The notes under the pieces were generated by a model. That model saw nothing but the letters and a program-made list of their open reading frames with translations. It was not told the origin of the DNA and ran no database searches. Positions 20,179-35,095 of a stretch of 37,124 nucleotides of DNA are shown piece by piece (within the stretch, counting starts at the first letter, position 1; every line of letters starts with the position of its first letter). Position numbers and translations under genes: made by a program. Origin of the DNA: Thermoleophilaceae bacterium (GTDB lineage: Bacteria; Actinomycetota; Thermoleophilia; Solirubrobacterales; Thermoleophilaceae); the NCBI GenBank assembly GCA_025928345.1, contig JAICJR010000008.1:1-37124 (forward strand), read 5' to 3'.

Positions 20179-20912
20179 GCGCCGCCGATCGCGCGCAGTC
20201 CCGCAAGCACCCCCTGCTGGCTGAGCGGCTTGATCGAGGTGCGCTTCACCATGCCACCCGGCAGCGCGAAGATGGTGGTTGGGCAGACGGCCACGTGGTA
20301 GAGGTTGAAGACCGAGAGGTCGCGGTCCACCGCCACGGGGAAGGTCCACCCGTGCCGGCGCACGAGCGTGGCCACCTTGGCGTGACTGCCGCCACTCACC
20401 ACCGCGGCGAACTGCGCCCGCGGATGCGCGCCCGCCATGCGCTGGAAGAGGTCGAGCTGGGCCTCGCACCTCGTCGCCCCCGGGACGATCAGCGACAGCA
20501 CGAGCGGCTTGCGGCTCAGCGCGCACGAGGTGACGCTCCCTGGCACGTGCACCTGGCAGGCGGGCTCTGCGCCGAGCTGGTTGGACTGCCTCCTTGTCTG
20601 CTTCACGTTTGCGTCCCCGTCGAGGCTGCTCGTGGCAAGCGGCGCGGCGAACTGCGGGAGCGGCCTGTTCAGCGGCGGCCCGTGCAAACTGCCGCCGCTG
20701 TGGCGAAGGGCGTTCACTCCCGCGAAGGCGATCGCGATCACGAACACCACGCCCACCACCCACATGTAGCGCCCGGCGGGGCGTGGCGGCGGGCCCGCCG
20801 GCTTCGACTTCCTCTCCTGGGCGAGGTCGAGCTCGTCGAGCTCCGCGAGCCGCTGTGCCGGGGATTGCTTGCCGTCGCCCGAGCCGAGGTCCGCGAAGCG
20901 GTCCTCGGTCAC
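20175..20912 (-). CDS. Membrane-anchored thioredoxin-fold (redoxin/TlpA-like) protein lacking CxxC
   Basis: 245 aa from the GTG at 20912, which overlaps the MMPL stop (GTGA); the longer frame to 21038 lies inside the MMPL gene. A cytoplasmic acidic N-terminus of about 45 residues is followed by one helix (YMWVVGVVFVIAIAFAGV) and an outer domain. That domain has the TlpA/AhpC layout: PLVLSLIVPGATRCEAQLDL where W-C-x-x-C is expected, an FPVAVDRDLSVFNLYHV strand-helix and the cis-proline loop V-C-P-T-T-I-F. Only the second cysteine of the redox motif remains (G-A-T-R-C), so a normal disulfide oxidoreductase is doubtful. Three other cysteines are present. Coupled to both the MMPL and the B3/4 gene. 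Confidence 0.78.
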   Translation of the reverse strand: MTEDRFADLGSGDGKQSPAQRLAELDELDLAQERKSKPAGPPPRPAGRYMWVVGVVFVIAIAFAGVNALRHSGGSLHGPPLNRPLPQFAAPLATSSLDGDANVKQTRRQSNQLGAEPACQVHVPGSVTSCALSRKPLVLSLIVPGATRCEAQLDLFQRMAGAHPRAQFAAVVSGGSHAKVATLVRRHGWTFPVAVDRDLSVFNLYHVAVCPTTIFALPGGMVKRTSIKPLSQQGVLAGLRAIGGA

Positions 20913-23662
20913 TGCCCCTGCGCCTCGACAGCCGGGGCGTCCGGCCGCGGCCGCCGCAGGCGCGGCAGGCGGAGGCGGGAGAGCGCGCGGCGGGGATCGA
21001 GGTCGCCGAGGGTGAAGCGGCCATGCTGCTCGGCCCACATGAGCGCCGCCGGGAGGACGACCATCACGCCGAGCAGAGACACCGTGAGGTCAACCACCGT
21101 CACAATGCCGAACTGGCGCAGCATGGTGATGTCGGACGCGATCAGTGCCGCGAAGCCCGCGATCGCAGTAGTGCCCGAGGCGAGCACCGCCGCGCCCGTG
21201 GAGGCGTACGTGCGCTCGAGCGCGCGGGCCGGCCCGGCGCCGGAGCCGCGCTCCTCCTTGTAGCGGGCGGACAGCAGCACGCTGAACTCCGTGGAGATCG
21301 CGATAACGAGCGCGCCGAGCCCGGCCGACATCGGGTTGAGCGGGATCCGCAGCAGGAACAGGACGAGCGCCGACCAGCCGGTGGCGAACGCGATCGGGAT
21401 CAGCGGAACAGCGGCCTCGCGGAGGCTGCGCCGGATGGCGAGGAGCACGAAGAACACCGCGGCGAGGCCGGCGAGCAGCGTGAGCGCGCGGCGGCTGGTG
21501 GACGACAGCGCGCTGTTCGCGTCTGCTGCCAGCACCGGCAGACCCACCACGTCCGCCCTCACCCCGGCCGGCGGGTGAAGCTGGCCGCGGATGTCGTCGA
21601 TCAGCCTCTTCTGACGGTCGAGCGGCATCAGCCGGATGCCGAAGGCCATGTTCGCCACCTTGTGGTCCGGCGAGATCACGCCCTGGGAGAAGTACGTCGG
21701 CACGGCCGCCAGCAGCGAGCGCACGCCCTGCCTGGTGATCGGCTGGCCGCTCGCGCTGAAGAGGTCGGGCAGCGACAGCGCGGGGCAGAGCTCAGGCGCG
21801 TTCTTCGCCTGGCTGCAGCGGTCGCCCGGCTTGTAGCCGTGGGCGGCCAGGACGCGCTGCTCGAAGTTCGTCATCCACTTCACCACGCTCGGATCCGTGA
21901 GGTCCTTGGCCCGCACCGTCACGTCGAGCTCGCCGGACACGCCGGTGGCGGCCTCGAGCTGCTTCACGTCCTTGAGCGCCTGGAGGTTCTGCGGCACGAG
22001 CTGCGTGACGTCCGAGACGACCTTCGTCTGGGTGTCCGCCGCCCAGCCGATCGCGGCGAGCAGCAGCCCGACCGCGAGCACCCGGCGCGGGCGCTCGACA
22101 GCGTTCGCCACGGACGCCGACGCTCCACGCCGGATGAAGTCCCAGGCACCGGTGGCCCCGTTCACGAGCAGGTTCCCCGGCCGGGTGGCCCCCGCGCGCG
22201 CGAGCCACTCGCGTCCGCGCGGGAAGAGCGGCGGAACGTCCTCGGGCCGGACGCGCGGCCCGTGGCCGAAGCGCGAGAGCGCGGCGAAGCCCGCGGTGAG
22301 CGCCACCGCGAAGGCGAGGACGATCCCGAGCACCAGCACAGCGCCGAACCCGCGCACCATCGGCACGGGCGAGAGGAGCAGCACGAGGAAGCCCACCGCC
22401 GTAGCGAGCCCTGCGCTGGCGATCGTCGGCCCGCCGGCCGCTGCCGCCGTGGGCGCGGCATCCTCGGGACGCAGCCCGGCCGCCGCGCCCTCCTCGAAGC
22501 GGGAGTGGAACTGAATCGCGTAGTCCACGGCCAAGCCGATAAGCACCGGAAGCGCCGCCACCGAGGCCATCGTCAGGCTGCCCCCGACGAGTGTGACCGC
22601 GCCGAACGCGAGCGCCGCCGCGGCGAGCGCGAGCGCCAGGGGCAGCATCCGAAGCCGCGCGCGGAACACGAGCGCGAGCGTGGCCGCCATGACGACGAGC
22701 ACCGCGATCAGCAGGACCACCACGGCGTGCTGTACCGACGTCGCCAGCGCGTCCGCCACCACCGGCACACCGCTGACGATGTACCGCTGGCCGTTCTGCA
22801 TGTGGAAGAACTTGTCCTTCGTGGCCTTCTGGATCAGGCCGATGGCGTGGCGTCGCTGCGCGTCCGAGAGGTCGGGCTTGAGCCGCACCTGCACGAGCGC
22901 CGCATTGGAGCTGGGCGCGAGGAACGCGAAGCGCGCCTTCGGCACGTTCACGCCCTTGCTCGGATCGAACCAGAGCTGCGACACGAACTCCGTGTTGTTG
23001 ATCGCCGGCACGCTCGTGAGGCCGTACTGGAGCGCGAGCGACAGCGTCTGCTTCACGAACTGCGCGTACACGAGCTGGCGCGCCTCGAGCGCGAGCTTGT
23101 TCTGCCGCGCCTTCGAATAGCCCTTCGCCGCGGCTGCCTGGCGGGCCGCCTGCGCCACCTCGTCCGCCTTGGCGGCCTCCTGATTGCGCTCCTGCGTGAA
23201 GCCCGCGCCGATCCGCTCAACCGCGGTGTTCGTGAAGGTCCCCGGGCCGAACACCACCTTCGCCGCCTTCGCCTGGGCGATCTGCGTGCACACATGCGGC
23301 ATCCGGTCGAGCCCGGCCGCCACGAGCTTCCCGTTCTGGACGATGCTCTTCGCCGGCACGTTCCCGGACAGGCAGCCCTCGAGCTTGATCAGCGTGTCGA
23401 GGTCCGACGTGAGGAGGGTGCGCTCGAGGTTGCCCTTCACGAGCACGACGACAGCGTCGTCCCCAAACTCCTTCTTGAACTGCTCGGTGTCCTTGAACGA
23501 CTGCGACGAGCGGTTGACAAGCGTGTCCGTAGACGCACTCGGCTGAATCCGCAGCGCATACACCGCAGCAAGCACGGCGAGCAGACCAACAGCAGCGAGC
23601 ACGGGAATGGGGCGCCGGACCACGAAGCGGACCAGGCGTGCGAAAGCTGCAGCACCCCTCAT
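20909..23662 (-). CDS. MMPL/RND-family transporter (917 aa)
   Basis: Proton-driven lipid exporter-type membrane protein. Plan: helix near 18-38, a large outer domain of about 260 residues, a five-to-six-helix block containing PVLIGLAVDYAIQFHSRFEEG, a helix after a cytoplasmic linker (PRRVLAVGLLLAAIGWAADT), a second outer domain, and a second helix block with LVIAISTEFSVLLSARYKEE. The two G-L-x-x-D-Y and S-T-E-F sites mark the RND-type MMPL repeat, the Asp/Glu being the proton-relay position. It follows the sixth mce gene by 125 bp on the same strand, so export and import of a hydrophobic substrate, or trafficking by one machine, may be linked. Hopanoid or mycolate-type cargo are family precedents only. 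Confidence 0.9.
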   Translation of the reverse strand: MRGAAAFARLVRFVVRRPIPVLAAVGLLAVLAAVYALRIQPSASTDTLVNRSSQSFKDTEQFKKEFGDDAVVVLVKGNLERTLLTSDLDTLIKLEGCLSGNVPAKSIVQNGKLVAAGLDRMPHVCTQIAQAKAAKVVFGPGTFTNTAVERIGAGFTQERNQEAAKADEVAQAARQAAAAKGYSKARQNKLALEARQLVYAQFVKQTLSLALQYGLTSVPAINNTEFVSQLWFDPSKGVNVPKARFAFLAPSSNAALVQVRLKPDLSDAQRRHAIGLIQKATKDKFFHMQNGQRYIVSGVPVVADALATSVQHAVVVLLIAVLVVMAATLALVFRARLRMLPLALALAAAALAFGAVTLVGGSLTMASVAALPVLIGLAVDYAIQFHSRFEEGAAAGLRPEDAAPTAAAAGGPTIASAGLATAVGFLVLLLSPVPMVRGFGAVLVLGIVLAFAVALTAGFAALSRFGHGPRVRPEDVPPLFPRGREWLARAGATRPGNLLVNGATGAWDFIRRGASASVANAVERPRRVLAVGLLLAAIGWAADTQTKVVSDVTQLVPQNLQALKDVKQLEAATGVSGELDVTVRAKDLTDPSVVKWMTNFEQRVLAAHGYKPGDRCSQAKNAPELCPALSLPDLFSASGQPITRQGVRSLLAAVPTYFSQGVISPDHKVANMAFGIRLMPLDRQKRLIDDIRGQLHPPAGVRADVVGLPVLAADANSALSSTSRRALTLLAGLAAVFFVLLAIRRSLREAAVPLIPIAFATGWSALVLFLLRIPLNPMSAGLGALVIAISTEFSVLLSARYKEERGSGAGPARALERTYASTGAAVLASGTTAIAGFAALIASDITMLRQFGIVTVVDLTVSLLGVMVVLPAALMWAEQHGRFTLGDLDPRRALSRLRLPRLRRPRPDAPAVEAQGQ

Positions 23663-23787: not shown

Positions 23788-25368
23788 TCAAGGCGAATCA
23801 GGCGCAGCGGTCACATGCGGGTACTTCCCGCTCTGCCCGATCAGGTTGCCGAGCGGTGCCTGCTCCCTACACGGCGGCGATGCCACGTTCGCCGGGCCGT
23901 TGCCGCCGTAGACGAACTTGTCGATGAGGGCGAAGGTGTCCGGCGAGATCAGGCTGGTGATGGCGCCGACGCCTGGCAGCAGCGGATCGATCGTCTGCAC
24001 CACGGTGGGCACCGGGTTGGTGGTGCACAGGTACGAGCCGAACACCTTGAGCCCGCCGCGGGCGAGGTCCAGGTAGCCGAGCGGCTGGAAGTACGGGTTG
24101 TTGCGGTTGCTCGCGATCCGCTTGGGATATGCGGCCAGCGCCTCCGGGTTCACCGGGTTCGTGGTGCGCAGGTAGTGCACCTGCTTCGAGTTGTCGGCCG
24201 CGGTGCAGCGCTGCACCGGCTTGTCGCACACCGCGGCGGTGGCCTGCGTGGCGGCGGCGTCGAGTGCGAAGAACGCGGCGGCCTCGTGCTTGTAGATGCC
24301 CACCCAGTCGAGGAACGGGTTGAGGCTGCGCAGGAACGGGTCGGCCTGCGCGAGCACCGGTCGCGTGGAGTCGAGGAATGACGACACCGCCGGCAGCCCG
24401 CGCTTGGACGCCTTCACGAGCGGGTGGATGTCCTGGAACAGCGCCTTCAGGTTCGGCGCGAGCTTGGCGGCGCTGATCAGCGTCGGCGAGAGCTGCCGCG
24501 CGGCCGGCCGCAGCTGGTTGATCAGCGGGTTCGCGTTGTTCGCGAACTTCGTGAGCCGCACCGAGATCGCGCGCGACTGGTCCTCGAACGTCGGGAACGC
24601 GATGAACGCCTGCTTGAGCTGCTGGTCGCGCGATGCCGTGGTCTGGAACACTCGGTTCGAGTTCGAGATGAGATCCGCGAGCTGCCCGTCGCGCTCGGTA
24701 AGCGCGTTGAACACCACGCCGGTGTTTCGAATGAGCCGCGACGTCGCCCCCTGCTGGCTGTGCAGCACCGCCAGCACCTTGTCCACGTTCTCCGCGAACG
24801 GCGTGAGGTTGCCGAGCGCGTCGTTCAGGTCCTGGCCGCGGCCCGTGAGCGCGATCCCCTCCTGCTGCATCCAGTTCTGGAACGCCAGTCGCGTCTTCGG
24901 GTCGAACGCGCGGAAGATCTCGTCGAGCTGCACCGTCTGCGCCACCTGGCCGTTCGCCAGCGTGCCGTTGTCCGGCAGCTTCGGCCCGGACCTGTTCCCC
25001 GGCGACAGCTCGACGTAGGTCTCGCCGAGGAGCGTCTTCTGCCGCAGGATCGCGCGCGTGTTCCGCGGGATCGGCGCGTACCTGTGGTTCATCTCGATCG
25101 TCACGGCGGTGAGCGGCTTCACCTGGCCCTTGTGCACCACCACCCTCAGGCTCACCACCTTGCCCACGTTCACGCCCGAGATGCGCACGTCGGCCTGATT
25201 GGCGAGCGTGGTGGCCTCCGGGAAGTTCACGGTCACGCGGTAGCCCTTGGCCCGCAGCGGCACCGGCCCGCCGAAGGTGATCCAGAGGTAGAGCAGGATC
25301 GCCACGCAGGAGACCGCGAAGGCCACCATCACGAGAATCCGCCCAAGGCTCGGTGCCTGCTTCTGCAT
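23788..25368 (-). CDS. mceF: MCE-family protein, sixth of the operon (MceF-like)
   Basis: 526-aa subunit of the MCE lipid-transfer tube. One N-terminal helix (residues 9-32, ILVMVAFAVSCVAILLYLWI) anchors it. The MCE/MlaD domain spans about 42-125 (YRVTVNFPEATTLANQADVR, then ISGVNVGKVVSL, ILRQKTLLGETYVELSPG). A long helical, Asn/Gln-rich region (130-380) contains typical MCE motifs such as ALTGRGQDLNDALGNLTPFA. A C-terminal outer part holds four cysteines (AVCDKPVQRC, YLCTTN, PPCREQ). ATG at 25368 overlaps the previous stop by one base. Letter names follow gene order only; orthology to individual mycobacterial Mce letters is not shown. Confidence 0.9.
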   Translation of the reverse strand: MQKQAPSLGRILVMVAFAVSCVAILLYLWITFGGPVPLRAKGYRVTVNFPEATTLANQADVRISGVNVGKVVSLRVVVHKGQVKPLTAVTIEMNHRYAPIPRNTRAILRQKTLLGETYVELSPGNRSGPKLPDNGTLANGQVAQTVQLDEIFRAFDPKTRLAFQNWMQQEGIALTGRGQDLNDALGNLTPFAENVDKVLAVLHSQQGATSRLIRNTGVVFNALTERDGQLADLISNSNRVFQTTASRDQQLKQAFIAFPTFEDQSRAISVRLTKFANNANPLINQLRPAARQLSPTLISAAKLAPNLKALFQDIHPLVKASKRGLPAVSSFLDSTRPVLAQADPFLRSLNPFLDWVGIYKHEAAAFFALDAAATQATAAVCDKPVQRCTAADNSKQVHYLRTTNPVNPEALAAYPKRIASNRNNPYFQPLGYLDLARGGLKVFGSYLCTTNPVPTVVQTIDPLLPGVGAITSLISPDTFALIDKFVYGGNGPANVASPPCREQAPLGNLIGQSGKYPHVTAAPDSP

Positions 25369-26717
25369 CAGGGGCCCGCCGGAGGAGTCGGGGTGCCGGT
25401 GCACACCTGCTGCTGCGTCGGCGCGTTCAGCAGGTCGATCAGGACCTTGAGCTGCGGGTTGAGGCCCTCGATCGCCTGCAGCACGCCGAGGCTCGTGCAG
25501 TCCGTGATGAAGAGGCCGCGGCGCACCACGCCGTGCGCGTCCTGCGTCGAGAAGATCGAGGCGCCCGCGTGGTTCACCCACGCGGCCCAGTAGAGGAAGC
25601 CCTCCTCCGGGCCGGGCGGGTTGTAGGCCAGCTCGTTGAGCAGCACGTTCAGGAACTGGGCCGTGCGCGTGAGCCGCGGCGCCACCGGGTTGAGGTGCTG
25701 GGCCGCGATCCGCAGCTCGTGCACGGTCGGCTGCGCCTTCACCGAGAACGGCCGCAGCTGGTTCTTGATCACCGGGGTGGTCTGCTTGAGGAACGGGCGT
25801 GTGGCTGCGAGCGACGGGCCGAGTGCGCGCGCGCCCGGCCGCAGCGCCTGGAAGGTCGGCCCCAGCACCTGGGCGAGCTTGTCCGCCTTGGTGAGCGTTG
25901 TGCTGCCGGTTTGGAGCGTGCCGGGGAGGAGCTGGAGAGTCTCCTCGAGCTTCTGGTCCTCGCTCGCGATCGCCTGGAAGTTCGCATTCGACGCGTCCAC
26001 GAGCTGCGTGAGCTGGTGGTCGCGGCCGGCGAGCGCCGTCGTGAGCAGCTGGAAGTTGTGGATCACCCGCTGCAGGTTCGCCCGTCGCTGCGAGAGGAGG
26101 CTGGTGAAGCGGGCGGTGTCACGCGCCGTCGGGTCGAAACGCTTGAAGGTCTCGCGAAGGTCGGCCGGGTAGCCCTTCGTGCCGAACGCCTGGCCGCCGG
26201 CGCTGATCAGGATCTGGAGATACGCGCGCGTGTCCGCGTCGAGGTTCGAGAGGATCTCGTCGAGGTTGACGTCGGGCAGCGTGTTCGACACCGGCAGCGT
26301 GCCGCCGTCGGGCACCGCGCCGGCGGACTTCGTACCGGGGTTCATCTCGATGTACATGTCCTTCAGCCCGGTCTTGGGCCGCAGGAGCAGCGTCGCGTTC
26401 TTGTAGACCGGCGCCTTGCGCTGGGACTTCTTGATCTTCATCTGCACGATGGCAACGCCGTTCTTGAGCTTCACGCCGCCGATCTCGCCGATCGGCACGC
26501 CGGCGATGTTCACGGTCTGCCCCTGCCCCGGCACGACGGCCTGCGCGGTCGAGAACTCGGCGTTGACCGTGTAGAAGTCCGTGCCCACGAACGGCACCCA
26601 GCCCGGCAGGAAGAGCCGCTGGTGGCCGAGTACATAGGCCGCCACCGCCAGCGCGATCACGAACAGGCCGATGATCGCCACGAAGTCGCGCAGGTGCTTG
26701 CGGATCGCCGTTCTCAT
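25368..26717 (-). CDS. mceE: MCE-family protein, fifth of the operon (MceE-like, no lipobox)
   Basis: 449 aa. N-terminal helix about 12-30 (VAIIGLFVIALAVAAYVL), MCE domain about 48-128 (YTVNAEFSTAQAVVPGQGQT, VNIAGVPIGEIGGV, LLLRPKTGLKDMYIEMNPG), then a helical region with the LSNLDADTR motif seen in all six proteins. In mycobacteria the MceE position is a lipoprotein; here there is no cysteine near the N-terminus and a plain membrane anchor is used instead. Two cysteines lie near the C-terminus (TDCTSL, QVCTGT). The end is proline-rich (GTPTPPAGP). The ATG overlaps the mceD stop (ATGA). Confidence 0.9.
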   Translation of the reverse strand: MRTAIRKHLRDFVAIIGLFVIALAVAAYVLGHQRLFLPGWVPFVGTDFYTVNAEFSTAQAVVPGQGQTVNIAGVPIGEIGGVKLKNGVAIVQMKIKKSQRKAPVYKNATLLLRPKTGLKDMYIEMNPGTKSAGAVPDGGTLPVSNTLPDVNLDEILSNLDADTRAYLQILISAGGQAFGTKGYPADLRETFKRFDPTARDTARFTSLLSQRRANLQRVIHNFQLLTTALAGRDHQLTQLVDASNANFQAIASEDQKLEETLQLLPGTLQTGSTTLTKADKLAQVLGPTFQALRPGARALGPSLAATRPFLKQTTPVIKNQLRPFSVKAQPTVHELRIAAQHLNPVAPRLTRTAQFLNVLLNELAYNPPGPEEGFLYWAAWVNHAGASIFSTQDAHGVVRRGLFITDCTSLGVLQAIEGLNPQLKVLIDLLNAPTQQQVCTGTPTPPAGP

Positions 26718-28168
26718 GGACCGCTCCCGACCGGCGCGTTGTTGAGGTTCGGCAGCGCGTTCTTGTAACAGGCGACCTTGGAGTTGTAGGGCGGCTCGCG
26801 GCCCGGGAACTTCGGCTGGGTGCCGAGCGGCTTGCTCGCCGCGTTGCCGAACAGCTGGCCGCTCTGCGAGAGCCCCGTGTGCACGCTCTGGTCGCCGCCG
26901 CCCGGCTGGAAGCGCGTGTACTGGCCGTTGCCGTCGAAGTTCGAGGACTCGGAGGAGAGCCCGACCATCGCCTGCCAGAACTCCTTGTAGTTGGGGAGGC
27001 CCGTGGTGAGGAAGCCGTCCTGGATCGGCACGTCGCCCGTGGGCAGCACGAGGCCGGTGGCGCAGCGGTTGATCAGGTCGAGCTGCGGGATCAGCTTGAT
27101 CGACTCGTCGGTCACGCCCGCCAGGTCGTGGATCGAGGGCCGCAGCTCGTTCACGAGGCCGCCGAGCTCCTGTGGCGAGACCAGCTTGCGCGCCTGCGCC
27201 ACCCACGGGAACGAGGCGTTGATCGTTGCCGGCGTCTCGCGGACACCCGGCAGGATCTCGCGCGCCCACGCGCGCGTGGGCGGGAACGACTGGTTGAGGT
27301 GGAGCAGCGTGGAGTTCGCCTTCGTCAGCACCGGGCCGAGCAGGTGGATCGACTGCCGCAGGTTCGATTGCTGCGCCGCGAACGCTGCCACGGTGCGGTT
27401 GAAGTTGGTGATGAAGTCCTGCAGCACGCCCTCGTTGCTGTCGAGTGCGGCCGCCACCTTCTGCGTCCCCAAGATCAACTTCGACAGGTCATGTGGGTCC
27501 TCGCCGAGCGTGGCCTGGTTCACGAGCGCGACGCCGCGCAGCGCCCTCGGCGAGTAGTTGAGCGAGCGGTTGAGTGCCTGCGCCGCCGTGAGCCCCTTCA
27601 CCGACGGCACCTGGTCCGCGTCCTCGCCCGGCAGCGGCTTGCCGTTGAGCGCGTCGCCATAGCCCTTCAGAAGCACCTGGAGGTTCGTGCGCGTGTCGGT
27701 CTGAAGCGAGCTCAGCACCTGGTCGATCTGCACCGGCGCACTCGTCTGCGTGACCGGGATCGTGCTGCCCGACCTGAGGTTGCGCGCGCTCGGGCTGCCC
27801 GGCGAGAGCTGCACGAAGAAGTTGCCCTCGAGGAAGAGCTTGGGCCTGACCTTGAGAGTCGCGTCCGAGTGGATCGGCAGGGCGTTGTTGTTCAGGCTCA
27901 TGGTCACGAGCGCCGCGCCGGTGGCCGTGCCGTTCGCGTCCTTGTAGAGCTTCACGTTCTTCACGGTGCCCACGTTCACGCCCGCGATCCGCACGGGCGA
28001 GTTCGTCCGCACGTTCGAGGCGTTCTGGAAGACCGCGTTGAGCTGGTAGTGGTGCGTGAAGAACGGGACGTGCTTCTCGAACGCGAAGTAGGACGCGATC
28101 ACGACCACCACGATCGCGATCAGCCCTGCGCGGAAGGGGCTCATGCCGGTTTTTTGGCCGCGGCGCAT
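26714..28168 (-). CDS. mceD: MCE-family protein, fourth of the operon (MceD-like)
   Basis: 484 aa. Short basic start (MRRGQKTGMSPFRAG), helix about 15-32, MCE domain about 43-126 (YQLNAVFQNASNVRTNSPVR, IAGVNVGTVKNVKL, LKVRPKLFLEGNFFVQLSPG). The helical tail follows with VLSSLQTDTRTNLQ. After it comes a longer C-terminal part with GFLTTGLPNYKEFWQAMVGL and a glycine-rich stretch (FQPGGGDQSVHTG). Two cysteines (NRCATG, VACYKN). The ATG at 28168 overlaps the mceC stop as TAATG, which I prefer to the longer frame. Predicted to form one ring position of a hetero-hexameric tunnel with the other five proteins. Confidence 0.9.
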   Translation of the reverse strand: MRRGQKTGMSPFRAGLIAIVVVVIASYFAFEKHVPFFTHHYQLNAVFQNASNVRTNSPVRIAGVNVGTVKNVKLYKDANGTATGAALVTMSLNNNALPIHSDATLKVRPKLFLEGNFFVQLSPGSPSARNLRSGSTIPVTQTSAPVQIDQVLSSLQTDTRTNLQVLLKGYGDALNGKPLPGEDADQVPSVKGLTAAQALNRSLNYSPRALRGVALVNQATLGEDPHDLSKLILGTQKVAAALDSNEGVLQDFITNFNRTVAAFAAQQSNLRQSIHLLGPVLTKANSTLLHLNQSFPPTRAWAREILPGVRETPATINASFPWVAQARKLVSPQELGGLVNELRPSIHDLAGVTDESIKLIPQLDLINRCATGLVLPTGDVPIQDGFLTTGLPNYKEFWQAMVGLSSESSNFDGNGQYTRFQPGGGDQSVHTGLSQSGQLFGNAASKPLGTQPKFPGREPPYNSKVACYKNALPNLNNAPVGSGP

Positions 28169-29580
28169 TACTTCACCTTCACCTGCCCGTCGGTGTGCGT
28201 GCCCTGGTTGCCGGGCACGTTGCCGATCACGGTCTTGCCCGGCGTGTAGACCTCGTTGCCGGCCTCGCACTCCTTCTCCTGGCCGGGCGAAGCCGTGTTC
28301 GGGTACGGGTTCGCGTGCAGGTGGTTGGCCACGTCGGGTCCGTTGGCGGGGGCGCTCGAAGGGCTGCCCTCGCTGTTCGGCCCCGTCGGCGTGGCGATGA
28401 TGATGAAGCGCTGCCAGGTGCCGTTGCCGTCGCCGACCGAGAGCAGGCTCGAGATGTTGCGCAGGAAGAGCGTGATGTAGTTGCAGGTGGTCTGCACCGG
28501 CGTGAGGAACGCGAGCGTGGGCTTCAGCGAGCTGAACGTGTGGTTCAGCTGGTGCACGCCCTTCGGCACGAGCGGGTCGGTGGCGAAGCGCTGCAGGGCG
28601 CGGAAGGTGCCCTCCAGCTGCTTGTTCATCGCCGGCGTCTCCGGCAGGTGCTTGGCGCCGGCCGTGAGCGCATCGGCGAGCACGGGCGCCGTGCGCGGGA
28701 GCACCGCCACGCCTGGTCGCAGCTCCCTCATGAAGCCCGTGAGGTTGCGGATGAACGGGCGCTGCAGAGGAAGCTGAGCGGTGACCGTGTCGAGCGTCGG
28801 CGGGCCCTTCGCGATCGTCTCCTGGAGGAACGGCTTCGCAACGGCCGCGAGCGCGGTGAAGGTGGTGTCCAAATTCGTGAACAGGTCGGCCTGCGTCTGA
28901 GCCACCGGCGCGGTGATCGACGCCGCGCGGTTCAGCGCCGGGAAGAACTGGCGGAGCTGCGTCTGCGGCGCCGCGAGGTTCGCGGCCACCGGCTGGAGAT
29001 TGGTGAACAGCGGCCGCAGCGCCAGAATCGCCTCGTTCAGGTCCTCGCCGCGTCCCGCGAGCGCGTCGCCGAAGCCCTGGAGCGAGCGCTGCTGCCCGGT
29101 TCGCGTGGGCTTGTTGAACATGTTGAAGATCTGGTCGATCTCCACCGGCCGCGGCTCAGCCTGCGACAACGGGATCGTCGAGCCGGCGGGATAGCCCGAG
29201 CCGGCGCGCCCCGGGGTGATTTCCACGTACTTAAGGCCGAGGGCCGAGCGCGGCCGCACCAGCACCGTCGAGTCGCGCGGCAGCGGCTCCACGCGCTTCT
29301 CGAGCTTCATCGAGATCACGGCCGTATCTACGCCGTTCGCGTGATGGCGAGGCTCGATGTTCGACACGGAGCCGACGCGCTCGCCGCCGATCCGCACGTC
29401 GTTGCCCTTCACGAGGTTGGCGGCGTTCGGAAGCTCCGCCTTCACGTTGTAGGTGGGCACGAACGGCAGGCCGTTGTTCGCGTTGTAGGCGAGGAAGACG
29501 GCCACGATCGTCACGAGCGTCGTCACCGCCCCGATCAGGACGGGGCTTCCGGCGAGAGATGCCGATCCGCGCCGTCCCAC
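28168..29580 (-). CDS. mceC: MCE-family protein, third of the operon (MceC-like)
   Basis: 470 aa. N-terminal helix about 13-31 (VLIGAVTTLVTIVAVFLAYN), MCE domain about 43-125 (YNVKAELPNAANLVKGNDVR, IGGERVGSVSNIEP, VLVRPRSALGLKYVEITPG), then MFNKPTRTG and the conserved FGDALAGRGEDLNEAI. The C-terminal domain contains two cysteines (TTCNYI, KECEAG) and a polar, Pro/Asn-rich end. Starts at GTG 29580, which shares one base with the mceB stop (TAGTG). In the operon order it corresponds to the middle of the hexamer set. No ligand-specific residue can be picked out by eye. Confidence 0.9.
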   Translation of the reverse strand: MGRRGSASLAGSPVLIGAVTTLVTIVAVFLAYNANNGLPFVPTYNVKAELPNAANLVKGNDVRIGGERVGSVSNIEPRHHANGVDTAVISMKLEKRVEPLPRDSTVLVRPRSALGLKYVEITPGRAGSGYPAGSTIPLSQAEPRPVEIDQIFNMFNKPTRTGQQRSLQGFGDALAGRGEDLNEAILALRPLFTNLQPVAANLAAPQTQLRQFFPALNRAASITAPVAQTQADLFTNLDTTFTALAAVAKPFLQETIAKGPPTLDTVTAQLPLQRPFIRNLTGFMRELRPGVAVLPRTAPVLADALTAGAKHLPETPAMNKQLEGTFRALQRFATDPLVPKGVHQLNHTFSSLKPTLAFLTPVQTTCNYITLFLRNISSLLSVGDGNGTWQRFIIIATPTGPNSEGSPSSAPANGPDVANHLHANPYPNTASPGQEKECEAGNEVYTPGKTVIGNVPGNQGTHTDGQVKVK

Positions 29581-31100
29581 TACGGCCCCAGGAGGTAGTT
29601 GAGGGCGGGGGCGGCCTGGCCGAGCGCCGGCGACGAATCCCGCTTCGCGCCCGCCCGGATGCGGTTCAGCGCGGCCTGGCGCTGCTGGTTCGCGTTCGGG
29701 CTCGCCAGCTCGATGAAGCGCTGCAGCAGGCTCGGCTTCCGCGTGGCGGAGGTGTTCGTCTGGCCGCTCGTGGAGGGCGCGACCTTCTGGCCGCTCAGCG
29801 CCTTCAGGATCGCCGCGTGCGTGCGATCGAGAATCGGATCGCCGGTGGAGCTCGAGGATGAGCTCGCGCTCGCCGCTGAGGTCTTGTTGAAGTTCGCGAG
29901 GCAGTCCGGCGCGACCACCTTCGTGACGTAGGTCGAGCAGGCATTGAGGATCAGGCCGGCTCGCAGGTAATGGCTGATGCTGTCGAAGCCGTTGATGGCC
30001 TGCATCTGGAAGAAGATGTAGTCCATCAGCCTGTTCACGGCGCCCGTGGCGGAGAGGCTCTTCTGGAGCGCGTCGAGGTTCTTCGACACCGGGTCCGCGT
30101 TCACGGCGAGCTGCGCCAGGTCAGTGGCGATCGGCAATGACTTGACGAGCGCCGGGGTACCCACGGTCGTCGCCTGCCCGAGCGACTTCACCGCCGGGAT
30201 CGACGCCTTCGAGAACGGGCCGAGCTCGATGATGAAGCGGTTGAACCCCGGCGCCGCGCGCCCGAGGTCCGTGATCACCGGAGTCATCTCATCGGAGAGC
30301 GCGCCGAGGTCGGTGAGCGTGGGCTTCAGCTGCCGCAGGAACGCGGGGAAGCGGTGGATCCCGGCCGAGATGTCGCCGCGCACGGCCGCCGTGGCCTGCG
30401 CTGTCCTGTTCGCCTGCGTGATGAAGTCCGCCACCTGCTGGCGGCGCGCGGCGAGCGGCTGCAGCACCTGGTCGGAGTTCTTCGCCAGGTCGGCGAGCGT
30501 GCGGTTCTGCTGGGCGAGGATGGCGAGCACCTTGTCGGTGTCGCGCAGCGCCGGGTTGGCGCGGTGGATCGCCGCATTCAGGTCCTTGCCGCGTCCCGCC
30601 AGCGCCGTGCCGAACTCGTTGATCAGGATCGACAGGCGCTCGCGCGTGGGCTCGCGCATGATGTCGCTGATCTCGTCGACGTCCACCGGCGAGCTCGTGT
30701 GCTGCACGCCGAGCAGGTGCTGCCCCTTTCCGTCGCCGTGCTTGATCGCGGGCAGCACCGGCGCGCGGGCGCTGCCCGGCGAGCACTCGGCGAACGTCTC
30801 GCCGATCAGCGACTGCGGCCGGATCGTGCAGTGGGCGTCCGTATGGAAGGGCGAGAAGCCGGCCCTGTTGATGTCGAGCACCACGGCGGCCTTGTTGTCC
30901 GGCGTGACGTGCAGCGAGGAGATCTTGCCCACCTTCGCGCCCGCCACCTTCACGTCCTCGCCCGGCACGGCGCGCACGTAGTCGAAGATCGCGCGCACCT
31001 GGTAGTTGCCGCCGCCTCCTCCGCCGCCCGCGCCGGTGCCGAACACGAGCACCACCGGCACCGCCACGAGCACGAGGAATATGAGCGCGAGCCGCCTCAT
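29580..31100 (-). CDS. mceB: MCE-family protein, second of the operon (MceB-like)
   Basis: 506 aa. Very short N-terminus and helix about 4-21, then an unusual run of glycines (about residues 23-31) before the MCE domain (about 33-112; YQVRAIFDYVRAVPGEDVKV, AGAKVGKISSL, IRPQSLIGETFAECSPGSA). The MCE domain itself carries two cysteines (AHCTIR, AECSPG), unlike the other five. Two more lie near 390-405 (NACSTY, PDCLANF). The tail has a poly-serine stretch (SAASASSSSSS) and ends near LNYLLGP. Conserved FGTALAGRGKDLNAAI in the helical region. ATG overlaps the mceA stop (ATGA). Confidence 0.9.
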   Translation of the reverse strand: MRRLALIFLVLVAVPVVLVFGTGAGGGGGGGNYQVRAIFDYVRAVPGEDVKVAGAKVGKISSLHVTPDNKAAVVLDINRAGFSPFHTDAHCTIRPQSLIGETFAECSPGSARAPVLPAIKHGDGKGQHLLGVQHTSSPVDVDEISDIMREPTRERLSILINEFGTALAGRGKDLNAAIHRANPALRDTDKVLAILAQQNRTLADLAKNSDQVLQPLAARRQQVADFITQANRTAQATAAVRGDISAGIHRFPAFLRQLKPTLTDLGALSDEMTPVITDLGRAAPGFNRFIIELGPFSKASIPAVKSLGQATTVGTPALVKSLPIATDLAQLAVNADPVSKNLDALQKSLSATGAVNRLMDYIFFQMQAINGFDSISHYLRAGLILNACSTYVTKVVAPDCLANFNKTSAASASSSSSSTGDPILDRTHAAILKALSGQKVAPSTSGQTNTSATRKPSLLQRFIELASPNANQQRQAALNRIRAGAKRDSSPALGQAAPALNYLLGP

Positions 31101-32491
31101 GGGCCGGGCGGGACGGTCGAGGGATCACAGGTCGTCTGCGGCTCGCGGTACGGGTTGGAGCCGTCCGGCGCCGGCTGCGTGGCGCCGCCCGGGCACTTCT
31201 GCTGCCGGTGCGTCTGGAATCCGGCGAGCCGCTGCGACGCGGGCGCCGCGGTGAGGAAGGAGCCGCTCGCGTTGTCCGTGAGCTGGAAAGCGTTGAACAT
31301 CGGCATGATGCGCGCGAAGTGGCCGTTGGCGTCGTAGTTGGCCGCGCCCTCCGCGAACTTGGTGAGCCAGCCGGTGAAGTCGGGCGCGTACGGCCGCAGG
31401 TAGTCCACGACAGGCTGGCCCTTCTGGAACGCCCGGATCGTCCGCGGGAAGTCGGCCTTCGCGAGGCTCGCGAGCTTCGGCTGCTTCGTCAGCAGCTCGA
31501 TCAGGTCGTTGTTCGACCCCTTCGTGCGGATCAGGTGGCGCAGGTCCGTGATCGTCGGCGTGGCGTCGCGCACCAGCGGGCGCAGCTGCTTGAGGAACGG
31601 TGCGAGCCGCTTGGTCGCCGGCTTCGACGCGTTCACGAGCCTGTCGAGGTCGTCGAGCGTGGAGTTGAGGTCGACAAACGTGGTGTTCGCCTGGCGCAGC
31701 GTCTGCGGCAGCACGCCCAGCGCCTGCGCGAGCGACACGTTCTCGTCCCCGATTGCGCGCATCGTCGTGTTCGCGTTGCCCACGAGCGCCGAGAGGTCGT
31801 TGCGGCGGCCCGCGATCGTCGTGACCACGTTCGATGTGTCCGTGACGAACTTCTGGAACTCCACCTGGTCGCGCGCCAGCTCCTGGGTGACGAGCGAGGA
31901 GGTGGACAGCGTCGGCGCCAGGTAGCGGAGGCTCTGGTTGGCGAGCTTGCCCTTGCCCTGCAGCTGCTCGGCCGAGCCCTGGATCAGCTGCTGCAGGCCG
32001 TGGCGGGTGGGCTTGTCGAGGGTGTTGAAGAGCTGGTCGAGGTCGACCGCCGAGTTGGTGTTGTCGGCGCCGATCGTGCCGCCGTCGGGGATCTTGTCGC
32101 CCGAGTTCGGCCCGGGCTGGAGGGACACGTAGCGGTTGGCGATGCCCGACAGCGAGTTCACGCGGATCGTCGCCACCGTGCCCTGGTGGAGCGGCGCGAA
32201 GTCCCCGCTCACGCTGATCTTTACCTGCGCCATCCCGTTCGGAGCGAGCGAGATGTCGTTGACCTTCCCCACCTCAACGCCGCCGACCTCCACGAGGTTG
32301 CCCCTCACGAGCTGGCTGGCGTTCTGGAAGTCCGCCGTGACCTGGTAGCCGCCTCCGGTGCCGAACAGGAGCACGCCCAGCAGCACGACGGCTGCGATCA
32401 CGGCAACTATCGCGATCGTGCGGGCAAGTGCCGTACCGGCCTCGCCGCGCCTTTGTCGCGGCGCGTTATGTGGAGAAGTGGGAGAGGGCAA
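31097..32491 (-). CDS. mceA: MCE-family protein, first of the operon (MceA-like)
   Basis: 464 aa. N-terminal helix about 24-43 (TIAIVAVIAAVVLLGVLLF), MCE domain about 48-127 (YQVTADFQNASQLVRGNLVE, VGGVEVGKVNDI, IRVNSLSGIANRYVSLQPG), then LFNTLDKPTRHG and a long helical part. Two cysteines near the C-terminus (QKCPGG, TTCDPS). The start is uncertain: the only start codon in this frame after the in-frame TGA is a TTG at 32491 with no ribosome site, while a good GGGAGG site precedes an ATG (32504) in another frame. It begins 89 bp after the ATPase stop, the only real gap inside the operon. Confidence 0.88.
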   Translation of the reverse strand: MPSPTSPHNAPRQRRGEAGTALARTIAIVAVIAAVVLLGVLLFGTGGGYQVTADFQNASQLVRGNLVEVGGVEVGKVNDISLAPNGMAQVKISVSGDFAPLHQGTVATIRVNSLSGIANRYVSLQPGPNSGDKIPDGGTIGADNTNSAVDLDQLFNTLDKPTRHGLQQLIQGSAEQLQGKGKLANQSLRYLAPTLSTSSLVTQELARDQVEFQKFVTDTSNVVTTIAGRRNDLSALVGNANTTMRAIGDENVSLAQALGVLPQTLRQANTTFVDLNSTLDDLDRLVNASKPATKRLAPFLKQLRPLVRDATPTITDLRHLIRTKGSNNDLIELLTKQPKLASLAKADFPRTIRAFQKGQPVVDYLRPYAPDFTGWLTKFAEGAANYDANGHFARIMPMFNAFQLTDNASGSFLTAAPASQRLAGFQTHRQQKCPGGATQPAPDGSNPYREPQTTCDPSTVPPGP

Positions 32492-32580: not shown

Positions 32581-33477
32581 CTACTCCATCCCGAGCGGGC
32601 CCTTGGCCTCGCCTGAGAGGAACTGCCGCACGAACTGGTTGTCGGAGTTGAACAACTCCTGCGCGGGACCGGACTCCACGATCCTGCCCTTCCACAGGAT
32701 CGCGATGTACTCGGCCACGCGGCGGGCCGACATGATGTCGTGCGTGATCACGACGTAGCAGCCGCCGTTCTCGTCGTGGATCTCCTTGATCAGCTCGCAC
32801 AGGAGCGCGGTGCGCACCGGGTCGAGCCCCGAGTCCGGCTCGTCGAAGAGCACGATCTGCGGGTCGAGCACGAGCGCGCGCGCAAACCCTGCCCGCTTGC
32901 GCATCCCACCCGAGAGCTCGTTCGGCATCTTGTCGTCCGCGCCGCCGAGGCCCACCTCCTTGAGCCTGCGGTTCACGATCTCCGCAATCTCGTCCTCGCC
33001 CTTGTCGGTGTGCTGCCGGAGCGGGAAGGCGACGTTGTCGTACAGGTTCATCGAGCCGAACAGCGCGCCGTCCTGGAACAGCACGCCGAACTTCTTCCGC
33101 ATCTCGAACAGGTCGTCGTCGGCCATGTTCGGCACCGACTCGCCGTGCACGAGGACGTCCCCCTCGTCGGGGTACAGGAGGCCGACCATGTGCTTGATGC
33201 AGACCGACTTCCCCGTGCCGGACGGCCCGAGGATCATCGAGATCATGTTGTCGGGAATGCCGAGGTTGAGGCCGTTGAGGATCGTGTTGCGGCCGAAGCT
33301 CTTCTTGACGTCGATGAACTCGATCGCGTCCTCGGAGCCGTGGTCGCGCTGTTGCCCGACGTGGTACTGGTACTCGTCCTGCTCTTCGGGCGAACCATCG
33401 TCGTCCACCACCTGAGTGGGCTGGTCCTCGGGCTCGAGCTCCCCCTGCTCCTCCGTGCGCTCGTACTCCTCAGCCAC
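32581..33477 (-). CDS. MCE transporter ATP-binding protein (MceG/MlaF type) with acidic N-terminal extension
   Basis: Cytoplasmic ATPase powering the YrbE/MCE lipid importer, 298 aa. Motifs (numbering from the ATG at 33492): Walker A GPSGTGKSV near 89-97, signature LSGGMRKRAGFARAL near 193-207, Walker B IVLFDE ending at Glu218, then PDSGLDPVRT, which is diagnostic of MlaF/MceG, and VITHD. About 50 residues before the ATPase core are very acidic (EEYERTEEQGELEPEDQ, DDDGSPEEQDE), absent from typical MlaF. I favour the GTG at 33477: an AAAGGAGAGG site lies just before it, and the alternative ATG at 33492 (overlapping the permease stop) would translate that site as MKGEG. In mycobacteria this subunit is usually encoded away from mce operons; here it is inside. 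Confidence 0.92.
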   Translation of the reverse strand: MAEEYERTEEQGELEPEDQPTQVVDDDGSPEEQDEYQYHVGQQRDHGSEDAIEFIDVKKSFGRNTILNGLNLGIPDNMISMILGPSGTGKSVCIKHMVGLLYPDEGDVLVHGESVPNMADDDLFEMRKKFGVLFQDGALFGSMNLYDNVAFPLRQHTDKGEDEIAEIVNRRLKEVGLGGADDKMPNELSGGMRKRAGFARALVLDPQIVLFDEPDSGLDPVRTALLCELIKEIHDENGGCYVVITHDIMSARRVAEYIAILWKGRIVESGPAQELFNSDNQFVRQFLSGEAKGPLGME

Positions 33478-33488
33478 TCCCTCTCCTT

Positions 33489-34289
33489 TCATCCGCCGAT
33501 CGGCGCCCGTGGGTTCGAGCCCCAGAAGATCTGGGTGCCGAGCATCCCCACGAGGTGGACGCCCACCACGTTCAGCACCATCGACTTCGCGGTCGCGGTA
33601 CCCACGCCCACCGGTCCCCCGCTGGCCGTATAGCCATAGTAGGCCCCGACGATCACGATGAAGGTGGCCATCGTCATCCCCTTGATGAGGCTGTACAAAA
33701 GGTCGGGCGGGTTCTGGAACATCCAGAAAATCAGGAAGTAGCCACCTGAGGACACCTCGCCGATCTGCTGCACCACCGCTAGGTAGGAGGCGAAGAAGCC
33801 GGCGCCGACGGCGGCGAGGTACATGAACGGCAGCACCATCCACGACGCGAGCAGGCGCGTGGCGCAGAGGAAGGTCATCGAGCTGATGCCCATCACCTCG
33901 AGCGCGTCGACCTCGTCCGAGATCCGCATCGCGCCGATCTCCGCCACGAGGCCGGTGCCCACCTTCGCGGCCATCATGTAGCCGAAGGCGTAGGGCATGA
34001 TCTCGCGCAGGTCGCACCACGCCGAGAACACGCCGGCGTACGCGGGCGCGCCCACCGAGCGGTCGAAGTAGGCGCCCTCGATGCCGCACTGGAGGCCGAG
34101 GATGAAAGTGGTGCTCCAGATCACGAGCGTGGAGCCCAAGATCAGGATGCCGGCCTGGCGCAGCGCCTCGCCGAAGAACTTGAACACGCGCCCGCCGAAG
34201 ATCTCGTAGAAGTCGCGCGCGGCGAACTTGGCGATGTCGCCAAGAGATGCGACCCAGTCGCGCGGAACCGTTAGCCAGGTCCGGCCCAT
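33489..34289 (-). CDS. yrbEB: MlaE/YrbE-family permease, second (YrbE-B)
   Basis: 266-aa membrane subunit of the MCE importer. N-terminal amphipathic part (GDIAKFAARDFYEIFGGRVF), then five or so helices. The family segment is KVGTGLVAEIGAMRISDEVDAL followed by EVMGISSMTFLCATRLLASW, the cytoplasmic EIdALraMG motif contacting the ATPase. The C-terminal helices include GMTMATFIVIVGAYYGYTAS and GGPVGVGTATAKSMV, matching the G-A-x-G-V-G-x-A motif of MlaE. The ATG at 34289 overlaps the previous stop (TAATG); the stop at 33489 overlaps the ATG candidate of the ATPase. Functions as a heterodimer with YrbE-A. Confidence 0.92.
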   Translation of the reverse strand: MGRTWLTVPRDWVASLGDIAKFAARDFYEIFGGRVFKFFGEALRQAGILILGSTLVIWSTTFILGLQCGIEGAYFDRSVGAPAYAGVFSAWCDLREIMPYAFGYMMAAKVGTGLVAEIGAMRISDEVDALEVMGISSMTFLCATRLLASWMVLPFMYLAAVGAGFFASYLAVVQQIGEVSSGGYFLIFWMFQNPPDLLYSLIKGMTMATFIVIVGAYYGYTASGGPVGVGTATAKSMVLNVVGVHLVGMLGTQIFWGSNPRAPIGG

Positions 34290-35095
34290 TACTTGATCAC
34301 CGAGATTTCGGGATGCGTTGCAAGCAGCGTCTGCGTGAACACGTAGTTGAAGGCGAAGATGCCCAGGAAGGCGATCACCACGCCCTGATTCACGGCTCGG
34401 CCCACGCCCTCGGCGCCGCCCGAGGCGGTCATGCCCTTGTAACAGGAGACGATCGCGATGATCGCGCCGAAGAGGGTGGTCTTGACAACGCTGCCCCACA
34501 GGTCGGTGACGGACGCGTTCGTGAGCAGTGTGGAGAAGAACGGCCCGAGCGGTGCCTTGAACGTGAGCGTGGCGAGGACGCCGCCGAAGATGCCGAAGAT
34601 CAGCGCGTAGATGTTGAAGAGCGCGGTGACGATCATCAGGGCGAGGAAGCGCGGCACCACCAGGTTCTTCACCGGGTCGACGCCGAGCACCTGAAGCGCG
34701 TCGAGCTCCTCGCGGATCTTGCGCGCGCCGAGGTCCGCCGTGATGGCCGTGCCGGCCACGCCGGCGAGGATGATCGCCGTGACGAAGGGGGCGAACTCGC
34801 GGATCGTCGCGAGCACGAAGAAGCCGCCGAGGCGGTCGATCGCTCCGAACAGGATCAGGAAGTTGCCGGCCTGGAGGCCAGGCGCGCCATAGCCGAACGC
34901 GATGGTGGAGATCAGCAGCGGGAACCAGCAGAGCCTGAGCGCGAACAGGAACTGGTTCACGAACTCGCCGCCGTACGGGTAGGGCGGGCGCAGCGCCGAC
35001 AAGATCGTCTTGCCGGTCAAGATCATCATGTCCCCTACCTGCTCGAGCAGGTTCTTCGTAGGTAGAAACGCTCGATCGGCTACTGCACGAACCAC
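34289..35095 (-). CDS. yrbEA: MlaE/YrbE-family permease, first (YrbE-A)
   Basis: 268-aa membrane subunit, first gene of the mce operon. Family segment: GTAITADLGARKIREELDAL then QVLGVDPVKNLVVPRFLALM. C-terminal block FGAIIAIVSCYKGMTASGGA with EGVGRAVNQGVV is the MlaE end motif. I set the start at GTG 35095, which follows a GGGAGGAG ribosome site by about 9 bases; the longer frame up to 35584 lies antisense to the divergent lipoprotein and is not a real N-terminus. A promoter candidate lies at 35154-35182. Together with YrbE-B and the ATPase it forms the inner-membrane pump that feeds or draws lipid from the MCE tunnel. Confidence 0.92.
   Translation of the reverse strand: MVRAVADRAFLPTKNLLEQVGDMMILTGKTILSALRPPYPYGGEFVNQFLFALRLCWFPLLISTIAFGYGAPGLQAGNFLILFGAIDRLGGFFVLATIREFAPFVTAIILAGVAGTAITADLGARKIREELDALQVLGVDPVKNLVVPRFLALMIVTALFNIYALIFGIFGGVLATLTFKAPLGPFFSTLLTNASVTDLWGSVVKTTLFGAIIAIVSCYKGMTASGGAEGVGRAVNQGVVIAFLGIFAFNYVFTQTLLATHPEISVIK

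What the first reader, a model, noticed from the sequence alone, without database searches (positions are those of the whole stretch)
23788..32491. All six MCE proteins have paired cysteines outside the membrane
Excluding one cysteine within an anchor helix of the sixth, the counts are 2, 4, 2, 2, 2 and 4 from A to F, mostly in the C-terminal regions. Even numbers in every subunit predict disulfide bonds or inter-subunit links stabilising the tunnel. The downstream thioredoxin-fold protein could interact with them.
Basis: partly seen in the sequence, partly recalled or inferred. Interest (0 to 1): 0.5.

Follow-up and report, generated by a model that had tools for sequence, protein, structure and literature searches.

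The report
Paired cysteines staple MCE tunnel tips
The six proteins that build this bacterial lipid-import tunnel each carry a pair of cysteines near the outer tip; relatives keep, gain or lose such cysteines almost only two at a time, which points to a staple (disulfide bond) inside each protein rather than links between proteins.

Summary
In detail: MceA-F hold 2, 4, 2, 2, 2 and 4 cysteines plus one in the MceF membrane helix. Twelve are conserved across Solirubrobacterales: one C-terminal ("portal") pair per subunit, in nearly all of 83-111 distinct sequences. MceB has a second conserved pair in its MCE domain. MceF C381 and C388 are private to the window, 1 of 110. The needle has 4 cysteines in 128,994 residues, the portal 1,189 in 84,391. 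Outside the order, 229 of 230 C-terminal regions hold an even number; permeases and ATPases of the same loci, 50 of 90. Evenness per subunit favours a disulfide inside each subunit, not inter-subunit links. Chains of the solved M. smegmatis Mce1 carry such cysteines in A, B, C, D and F. The downstream thioredoxin-fold protein is tied to MCE (full length in 26 of 27 MCE genomes, 0 of 12 without) but lacks CXXC and was not found at such scores in 34 MCE genomes outside the order, so it is not the general catalyst. No bond or distance was measured.

The parts
31097..32491 (-). MceA; portal pair C433 (31193-31195) and C455 (31127-31129)
   Evidence: Pfam MlaD and Mce4_CUP1; both Cys in 82 of 83 distinct sequences
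29580..31100 (-). MceB; portal pair C388 (29937-29939) and C400 (29901-29903); MCE-domain pair C91 (30828-30830) and C106 (30783-30785)
   Evidence: Pfam MlaD; C388 and C400 84 of 86, both lost together in L118; C91 82 of 86, C106 81 of 86
28168..29580 (-). MceC; portal pair C366 (28483-28485) and C438 (28267-28269)
   Evidence: Pfam MlaD; 98 and 97 of 99
26714..28168 (-). MceD; portal pair C369 (27062-27064) and C467 (26768-26770)
   Evidence: Pfam MlaD; 104 and 105 of 106; AlphaFold2 model puts C369 near the end of the last long helix 338-372
25368..26717 (-). MceE; portal pair C407 (25497-25499) and C439 (25401-25403); no cysteine near the N-terminus, so no lipobox
   Evidence: Pfam MlaD; 104 and 99 of 111 by column
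23788..25368 (-). MceF; portal pair C448 (24025-24027) and C500 (23869-23871); private pair C381 (24226-24228) and C388 (24205-24207); anchor-helix C21 (25306-25308)
   Evidence: Pfam MlaD; C448 108 of 110, C500 107 of 110, C381 and C388 1 of 110, C21 103 of 110
20909..23662 (-). MMPL-family membrane protein following mceF
   Evidence: Pfam MMPL 3.8e-57; present in 39 of the 40 order operons (of 76 with enough downstream sequence) that have the thioredoxin-fold gene after mceF
20175..20912 (-). membrane-anchored thioredoxin-fold protein, 245 aa; C119, C130, C149, C210; no CXXC
   Evidence: AlphaFold2 pLDDT 88.3, pTM 0.71; Foldseek best ResA 1su9 E 2.3e-10; single full-length copy tied to MCE
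32581..33492 (-). MceG-like ATPase
   Evidence: Pfam ABC_tran 1.7e-25; start inferred
33489..34289 (-). YrbEB permease
   Evidence: Pfam MlaE 4.1e-50; start inferred
34289..35029 (-). YrbEA permease
   Evidence: Pfam MlaE 2.1e-57; start inferred

Best explanation
The window holds a complete MCE lipid transporter operon of a Solirubrobacterales bacterium: two permeases, an ATPase, six MCE proteins A-F, an MMPL-family protein and a thioredoxin-fold protein. Each of A-F carries one conserved cysteine pair in its C-terminal region. By homology with Mycobacterium smegmatis Mce1, these regions make the portal, the globular mouth at the outer end of the tunnel. I infer that each pair is oxidised after export to a structural disulfide inside its own subunit and staples the irregular loops of the portal. 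MceB has a second pair across a hairpin in its MCE domain, inferred to hold that hairpin in the ring. Shown here: positions, conservation, evenness and the near absence of cysteine from the needle. Inferred: the bonds themselves, their intra-subunit nature and their stabilising role.
For: Conservation in nearly all of 83-111 distinct sequences per subunit, while sequences aligned for B, C, D and F are only 30-61% identical to the window's. Evenness of the number of Cys after about residue 200: outside the order 229 of 230 closed proteins from 40 loci, or 202 of 202 in the 34 operons with exactly six hits; in the order 542 of 547. The five odd ones in the order: L074 MceC lacks the conserved C-terminal end, L140 MceD is short with a gap at C369, L127 MceE holds a run of X, and L112 and L150 MceF have one extra Cys outside the usual pair. 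Control: MceG, YrbEA and YrbEB are even in 50 of 90 outside and 68 of 116 inside the order. At least 35 changes of the number by parsimony on one tree of 58 operons, with states 0, 2, 4, 6, 8 and two odd tips (odd tips are one MceC and one MceF). Paired loss in MceB of L118; private gains come as close pairs (window F C381/C388, L047 A, L122 A, L059, L060 and L068 E). Cys density: needle 4 of 128,994, portal 1,189 of 84,391; in the ring 170 of 175 are in MceB. The portal is made of the C-termini of the six Mce1 proteins (PMC9882608, passages). A probably mycobacterial operon (L189) aligns over nearly the whole length of 8fed chains A-F, and its C-terminal cysteines in A, B, C, D (two each) and F (eight) are matched by cysteines in the chains.
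Against: No disulfide was observed and no distance could be read: the AlphaFold2 model of MceD is uncertain in the portal (pTM 0.37, ten-residue blocks down to pLDDT 38) and the tool gives no coordinates. Parity counts sequences that share ancestry; the tree count is a partial remedy only. Inside the order nearly every subunit has exactly two, so parity there is close to one inherited state. One odd case outside the order (L152, last subunit, one Cys), and one subunit each of L152, L153, L154 and L160 scored too low to be among the 230. Eleven MCE genomes with paired portals have neither of the two oxidation-gene families I searched. Conserved paired cysteines could in principle bind metal or be redox active.
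Confidence: 0.85

Rival explanations
1. The cysteines form inter-subunit disulfides that lock neighbouring subunits around the portal.
For: Six subunits each with a pair could make a closed ring of links; the portal is built jointly by the six C-termini (PMC9882608, passages).
Against: Evenness holds per subunit (229 of 230); the fifth subunit has none in 21 of 34 outside operons while in most of these the fourth and sixth keep two or more; MceB of L118 lost both of its own while the other five subunits of L118 keep theirs.
Confidence: 0.07
2. The thioredoxin-fold protein is a dedicated oxidase, isomerase or holdase for the portal cysteines of MCE complexes in this order.
For: One full-length copy (167 bits or more) in 26 of 27 MCE genomes and 0 of 12 MCE-less genomes (MCE status); Fisher p 3e-9 overall and 6e-6 within the order, phylogeny not removed. 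In 12 genomes it lies with MceG and MMPL, most with permease genes too, and no MCE gene nearby; in L054 and L065 it follows mceF directly. Four conserved cysteines, ResA-like fold.
Against: No CXXC: the position of the N-terminal nucleophile has no Cys. No match of comparable score in 34 MCE genomes outside the order, which have even-numbered portal cysteines too. DsbA-like proteins (Thioredoxin_4) are present in all 27 MCE genomes of the order. A weak near-full-length match occurs in an MCE-less genome of the order (G011, 50 bits).
Confidence: 0.2
3. The pairs bind a metal or act as redox switches that gate the portal.
For: Strict conservation; some D and F subunits outside the order have 6 to 8 Cys.
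Against: Mostly one lone pair per subunit, variable spacing, change in whole pairs; no conserved neighbouring His was noticed in the contexts printed, which was not a systematic test.
Confidence: 0.05
4. Even numbers are chance or a by-product of common ancestry.
For: Six even counts alone are about 1 in 64; sequences in the order are related.
Against: At least 35 changes of the number on the tree; membrane and cytosolic proteins from the same loci are near half even.
Confidence: 0.02

Closest known systems
Mce1 transporter of Mycobacterium smegmatis (PDB 8FED, 8FEE, 8FEF)
   Same: Two permeases, ATPase and six MCE proteins; MCE domain and needle helices match by fold; paired C-terminal cysteines in A, B, C, D and F
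   Different: In the window MceE also has a portal pair and no N-terminal lipobox cysteine, MceB has a ring pair, and the operon carries MMPL and thioredoxin-fold genes. Disulfides do not appear in the preprint by word search.
MlaD / LetB / PqiB MCE proteins of Gram-negative bacteria
   Same: MCE fold of the ring domain (5uw8 Z 16.4, rmsd 1.7, 100 aligned)
   Different: Homo-oligomers (recalled, not tested)
ResA / StoA / DsbE (MPT53) thiol-disulfide oxidoreductases
   Same: Membrane-anchored thioredoxin fold (1su9 E 2.3e-10; MPT53 profile E 7e-14)
   Different: First Cys of CXXC absent; the kept Cys aligns with the second, and another Cys sits just before the presumed cis-Pro; an extra conserved pair C119/C130 lies ahead of the matched core
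DsbA-VKOR oxidative folding pathway of mycobacteria
   Same: General route for disulfides in exported mycobacterial proteins (PMC12421883, passages)
   Different: A word search of that paper's main text gave no Mce

Membership tests
Actinobacterial MCE (Mce1-type) transporter | Six consecutive genes with one MlaD/MCE domain each | tested here: met
Actinobacterial MCE (Mce1-type) transporter | Two MlaE/YrbE permeases and an ABC ATPase encoded alongside | tested here: met
Actinobacterial MCE (Mce1-type) transporter | Heterohexamer with needle and portal | not testable with these tools
   Only single chains could be modelled; the listed alignments of the MceD model to 8fed-type chains end at model residue 336
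Portal disulfide (one bond inside each subunit) | Paired, conserved, extracytoplasmic cysteines | tested here: met
   extracytoplasmic by homology with Mce1
Portal disulfide (one bond inside each subunit) | S-S bond or Cys-Cys distance of about 2 angstrom | not testable with these tools
   No coordinates are given by the structure tools
ResA/DsbE-type thiol-disulfide oxidoreductase | Thioredoxin fold | tested here: met
ResA/DsbE-type thiol-disulfide oxidoreductase | CXXC active site | tested here: not met
   Cys at 119, 130, 149, 210 only; alignment to ResA and MPT53
ResA/DsbE-type thiol-disulfide oxidoreductase | N-terminal membrane anchor | tested here: met
   Predicted helix 51-72 ahead of the core, hydrophobic by sequence; prediction only
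MceE lipoprotein (LprK type) | Lipobox cysteine near the N-terminus of MceE | tested here: not met
   MceE of the window has Cys only at 407 and 439

The most novel reading that the evidence does not exclude
The thioredoxin-fold protein is a new kind of dedicated MCE assembly factor: it gave up the CXXC nucleophile, pairs the remaining active-site cysteine (C149) with a cysteine placed just before the cis-proline (C210), and oxidises, shuffles or holds the portal cysteines of every MCE complex in the cell from a single gene, or stays bound as a part of the transporter.
Probability: 0.2. Interest if true: 0.72.

Novelty: new variant of a known kind. Interest (0 to 1): 0.5.

Why it matters
MCE transporters feed lipids to actinobacteria, mycobacteria among them. 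A near-universal rule that portal cysteines come in pairs inside each subunit makes oxidative folding a likely condition of MCE assembly. It links these transporters to the disulfide-forming pathway and can be checked at once in deposited structures. The co-travelling CXXC-less thioredoxin-fold protein offers a concrete candidate assembly factor in Solirubrobacterales.

Tried and rejected
Foldseek and VIA-align on MceD matched MCE chains; the listed VIA ranges for them end at residue 336, so the portal was barely tested, which says nothing for or against.

Oxidative folding genes as a correlate: VKOR (PF07884) is in 18 of 27 MCE genomes of the order and 16 of 34 MCE genomes outside; Thioredoxin_4 (PF13462) in 27 of 27 and 0 of the 3 Cys-poor genomes and in 17 of the other 31. 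The three genomes whose sampled operon has few portal pairs (G355, G154, G182; L151, L156, L172) have neither, but 11 of the 31 with paired portals also have neither, so this is only suggestive (Fisher p 0.06). Only these two families were searched; other DsbA families were not.

Thioredoxin-fold gene as the general cause of paired portals: rejected, since paired portals occur in 34 genomes outside the order without a match of comparable score and in operons of the order that lack it nearby (36 of 76 with at least 3.7 kb after mceF; the 76 include duplicates of the same loci). Limits of that absence: the search scores at most 70 or 80 first-look candidates in many genomes, and weak matches over most of the model exist in G011 (50 bits, no MCE), G218 (54.6 bits) and G384 (43.4 bits). 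Two of the 26 full-length matches (G145, G115) are reported with one TGA inside the matched stretch.

MceF C381/C388 as part of the conserved set: rejected (1 of 110). Inter-subunit links as the main mode: disfavoured, see rivals.

Rows dropped: removes proteins with identical last 250 residues and MCE hits under 140 bits; one search's count for the order drops L151, proteins open at the 3' end or cut at the 5' end, and L034, L036, L039, L042, L070; its outside count uses only 34 of 40 loci (those with exactly six hits) and leaves out ORFs open at the 3' end. One search takes all 40 loci and brings in the one odd case; one weak-scoring subunit each of L152, L153, L154 and L160 is still outside it. 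One search drops L151 and sequences over 900 aa, with region borders set by eye. Starts of proteins from other genomes are approximate, so 'residue 200' is too. Subunit names outside the order are by position, not by orthology.

Print: searches (MCE and disulfide) show no paper on MCE portal disulfides in what was listed (4 of 5, 3 of 3, 15 of 109, 10 of 78, 12 of 16 and 10 of 24 papers listed); the published Nature version of the structure is not held, so I cannot say that it is silent. Papers seen, passages only: PMC10517005, PMC9882608, PMC12421883, PMC10792529, PMC6544083.
Full report
Observation. The six MCE genes are on the - strand at 23788-32491, mceA first. Upstream lie two MlaE permeases and an ABC ATPase; downstream an MMPL protein and a thioredoxin-fold protein. 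The genome is an incomplete assembly of 3.45 Mb with 18 MCE domains on five contigs. The named relatives are mostly Thermoleophilaceae, Solirubrobacteraceae and other Solirubrobacterales.

Conservation. An MceC search found matches in 27 of 149 genomes of the class, all in the window's order. From these I took 40 operon regions, and a pattern scan gave 80 named loci. In the first set, the window included, the two C-terminal cysteines are present in all 38 MceA, 41 MceB, 41 MceC, 40 MceD and 38 MceF; MceE shows 35 and 38 of 39, where L036 is cut and L051, L052 and L056 have the Cys shifted in the alignment. In the larger set of distinct sequences (83, 86, 99, 106, 111, 110 for A-F) the same columns hold in nearly all. 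L151, from outside the order, lacks the canonical columns in all six, though its third subunit has two C-terminal cysteines elsewhere. MceB of L118 has lost both portal cysteines. MceB C91 and C106 are in 82 and 81 of 86; the misses are cut sequences and L151. In 34 operons outside the order no second subunit has two cysteines in residues 46-200. MceF C21 is in 103 of 110. MceF C381/C388 are only in the window.

Place. Along the chain, cysteine is almost absent from the needle (4 in 128,994 residues) and concentrated in the portal (1,189 in 84,391); in the ring it is nearly confined to MceB (170 of 175) (region borders set by eye on the window numbering). In the M. [quoted passage not shown] In the MceD model C369 is near the end of the last long helix (338-372) and C467 is near the C-terminus, but the portal confidence is low. 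By eye, MceB C91 and C106 correspond to MceD L105 and L121, which face each other across strands 104-109 and 117-122 of the model. That this hairpin carries the pore-lining loop of MCE rings is recalled, not tested.

Evenness. I took 40 further regions from actinobacteria outside the order. Of 230 proteins with a closed 3' end, 229 have an even number of cysteines after about residue 200 (55 with none, 155 with two, 11 with four, 5 with six, 3 with eight) and one is odd (L152, last subunit). In the 34 operons with exactly six hits it is 202 of 202. In the order it is 542 of 547; the five odd ones are a tail that lacks the conserved end (L074), a short sequence with a gap (L140), a run of X (L127) and two MceF with one extra Cys (L112, L150). 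Proteins of the same loci serve as control: outside the order MceG 11 of 21, YrbEA 21 of 34, YrbEB 18 of 35 are even; in the order 32 of 48, 18 of 33, 18 of 35. On one tree of 58 operons the number changed at least 35 times by parsimony. Private additions are local pairs, for example window F C381/C388, L047 A C370/C378, L122 A C412/C421, L059 E C384/C390. Evenness per subunit is what bonds inside each subunit predict.

Solved relatives. The bond can therefore be looked up in deposited structures where those residues are modelled; the preprint says parts of the C-termini of Mce1C, D and F are not. I had no access to coordinates. The preprint has no hit for disulfide (listing) or disulphide, and two for cysteine, neither about the portal in the passages shown.

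The thioredoxin-fold protein. It is 245 aa with C119, C130, C149 and C210, all four conserved in its family apart from one cut and five spurious rows. The model is good (pLDDT 88.3) and ResA-like. Against ResA and MPT53, C149 takes the place of the second Cys of CXXC, the first is missing, and C210 stands just before the proline taken to be the cis-Pro. In 39 genomes, full-length matches (167 bits or more) occur once in 26 of 27 genomes with MCE and in none of 12 without, where the best match over most of the model has 50 bits (G011) (MCE status). The exception, G035, has its MMPL gene running off a contig end (L037). All 26 copies lie beside MCE-system genes: after mceF and MMPL, directly after mceF in L054 and L065, or in a separate group with the ATPase gene and MMPL, most with permease genes, in 12 genomes. 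In 34 MCE genomes outside the order no match exceeds 71 bits and nearly all are thioredoxin domains only; G218 and G384 have weak matches over most of the model. So it is an MCE partner of this order, with an unknown and perhaps non-catalytic role.

Oxidation route. DsbA-like Thioredoxin_4 proteins are in all 27 MCE genomes of the order and VKOR in 18 of 27, the window's own genome included. Outside, three genomes whose sampled operon has few portal pairs lack both, but so do 11 of 31 with paired portals. This is suggestive only.

Verdict. The disulfide reading is very probably right in its intra-subunit form, and looks general in actinobacterial MCE systems rather than special to this window. 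The inter-subunit form is unlikely. The thioredoxin link is real as genetics, open as mechanism.

Noticed in passing
25306-25308 (MceF C21): A cysteine in the MceF anchor helix, in a strongly conserved stretch, is kept in 103 of 110 sequences. The stretch continues hydrophobic, so a plain lipobox is doubtful; it may pack against the permease.
   Followed up: partly
25368-26717 (MceE): MceE of the window has no lipobox cysteine, unlike mycobacterial MceE, which has been proposed to be a lipoprotein.
   Followed up: partly
20175-23662: MMPL and CXXC-less thioredoxin-fold genes form a two-gene unit that follows either mceF or, elsewhere in the genome, the ATPase and permease genes.
   Followed up: yes
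L151, L156, L172: Operons from three genomes with few portal pairs, whose genomes also lack VKOR and Thioredoxin_4 matches.
   Followed up: partly
L118, L125, L137: Records titled Bifidobacterium breve MAG carry Solirubrobacterales-type MCE operons, so their titles are probably wrong.
   Followed up: no
L068: MCE operon with extra cysteine pairs in A, B and E.
   Followed up: no
14739-16385 and 2113-5027: A cyclopropane-fatty-acid-synthase-like gene (CMAS) and an ABC ATPase followed by an FtsX/MacB-type gene lie in the same window.
   Followed up: no
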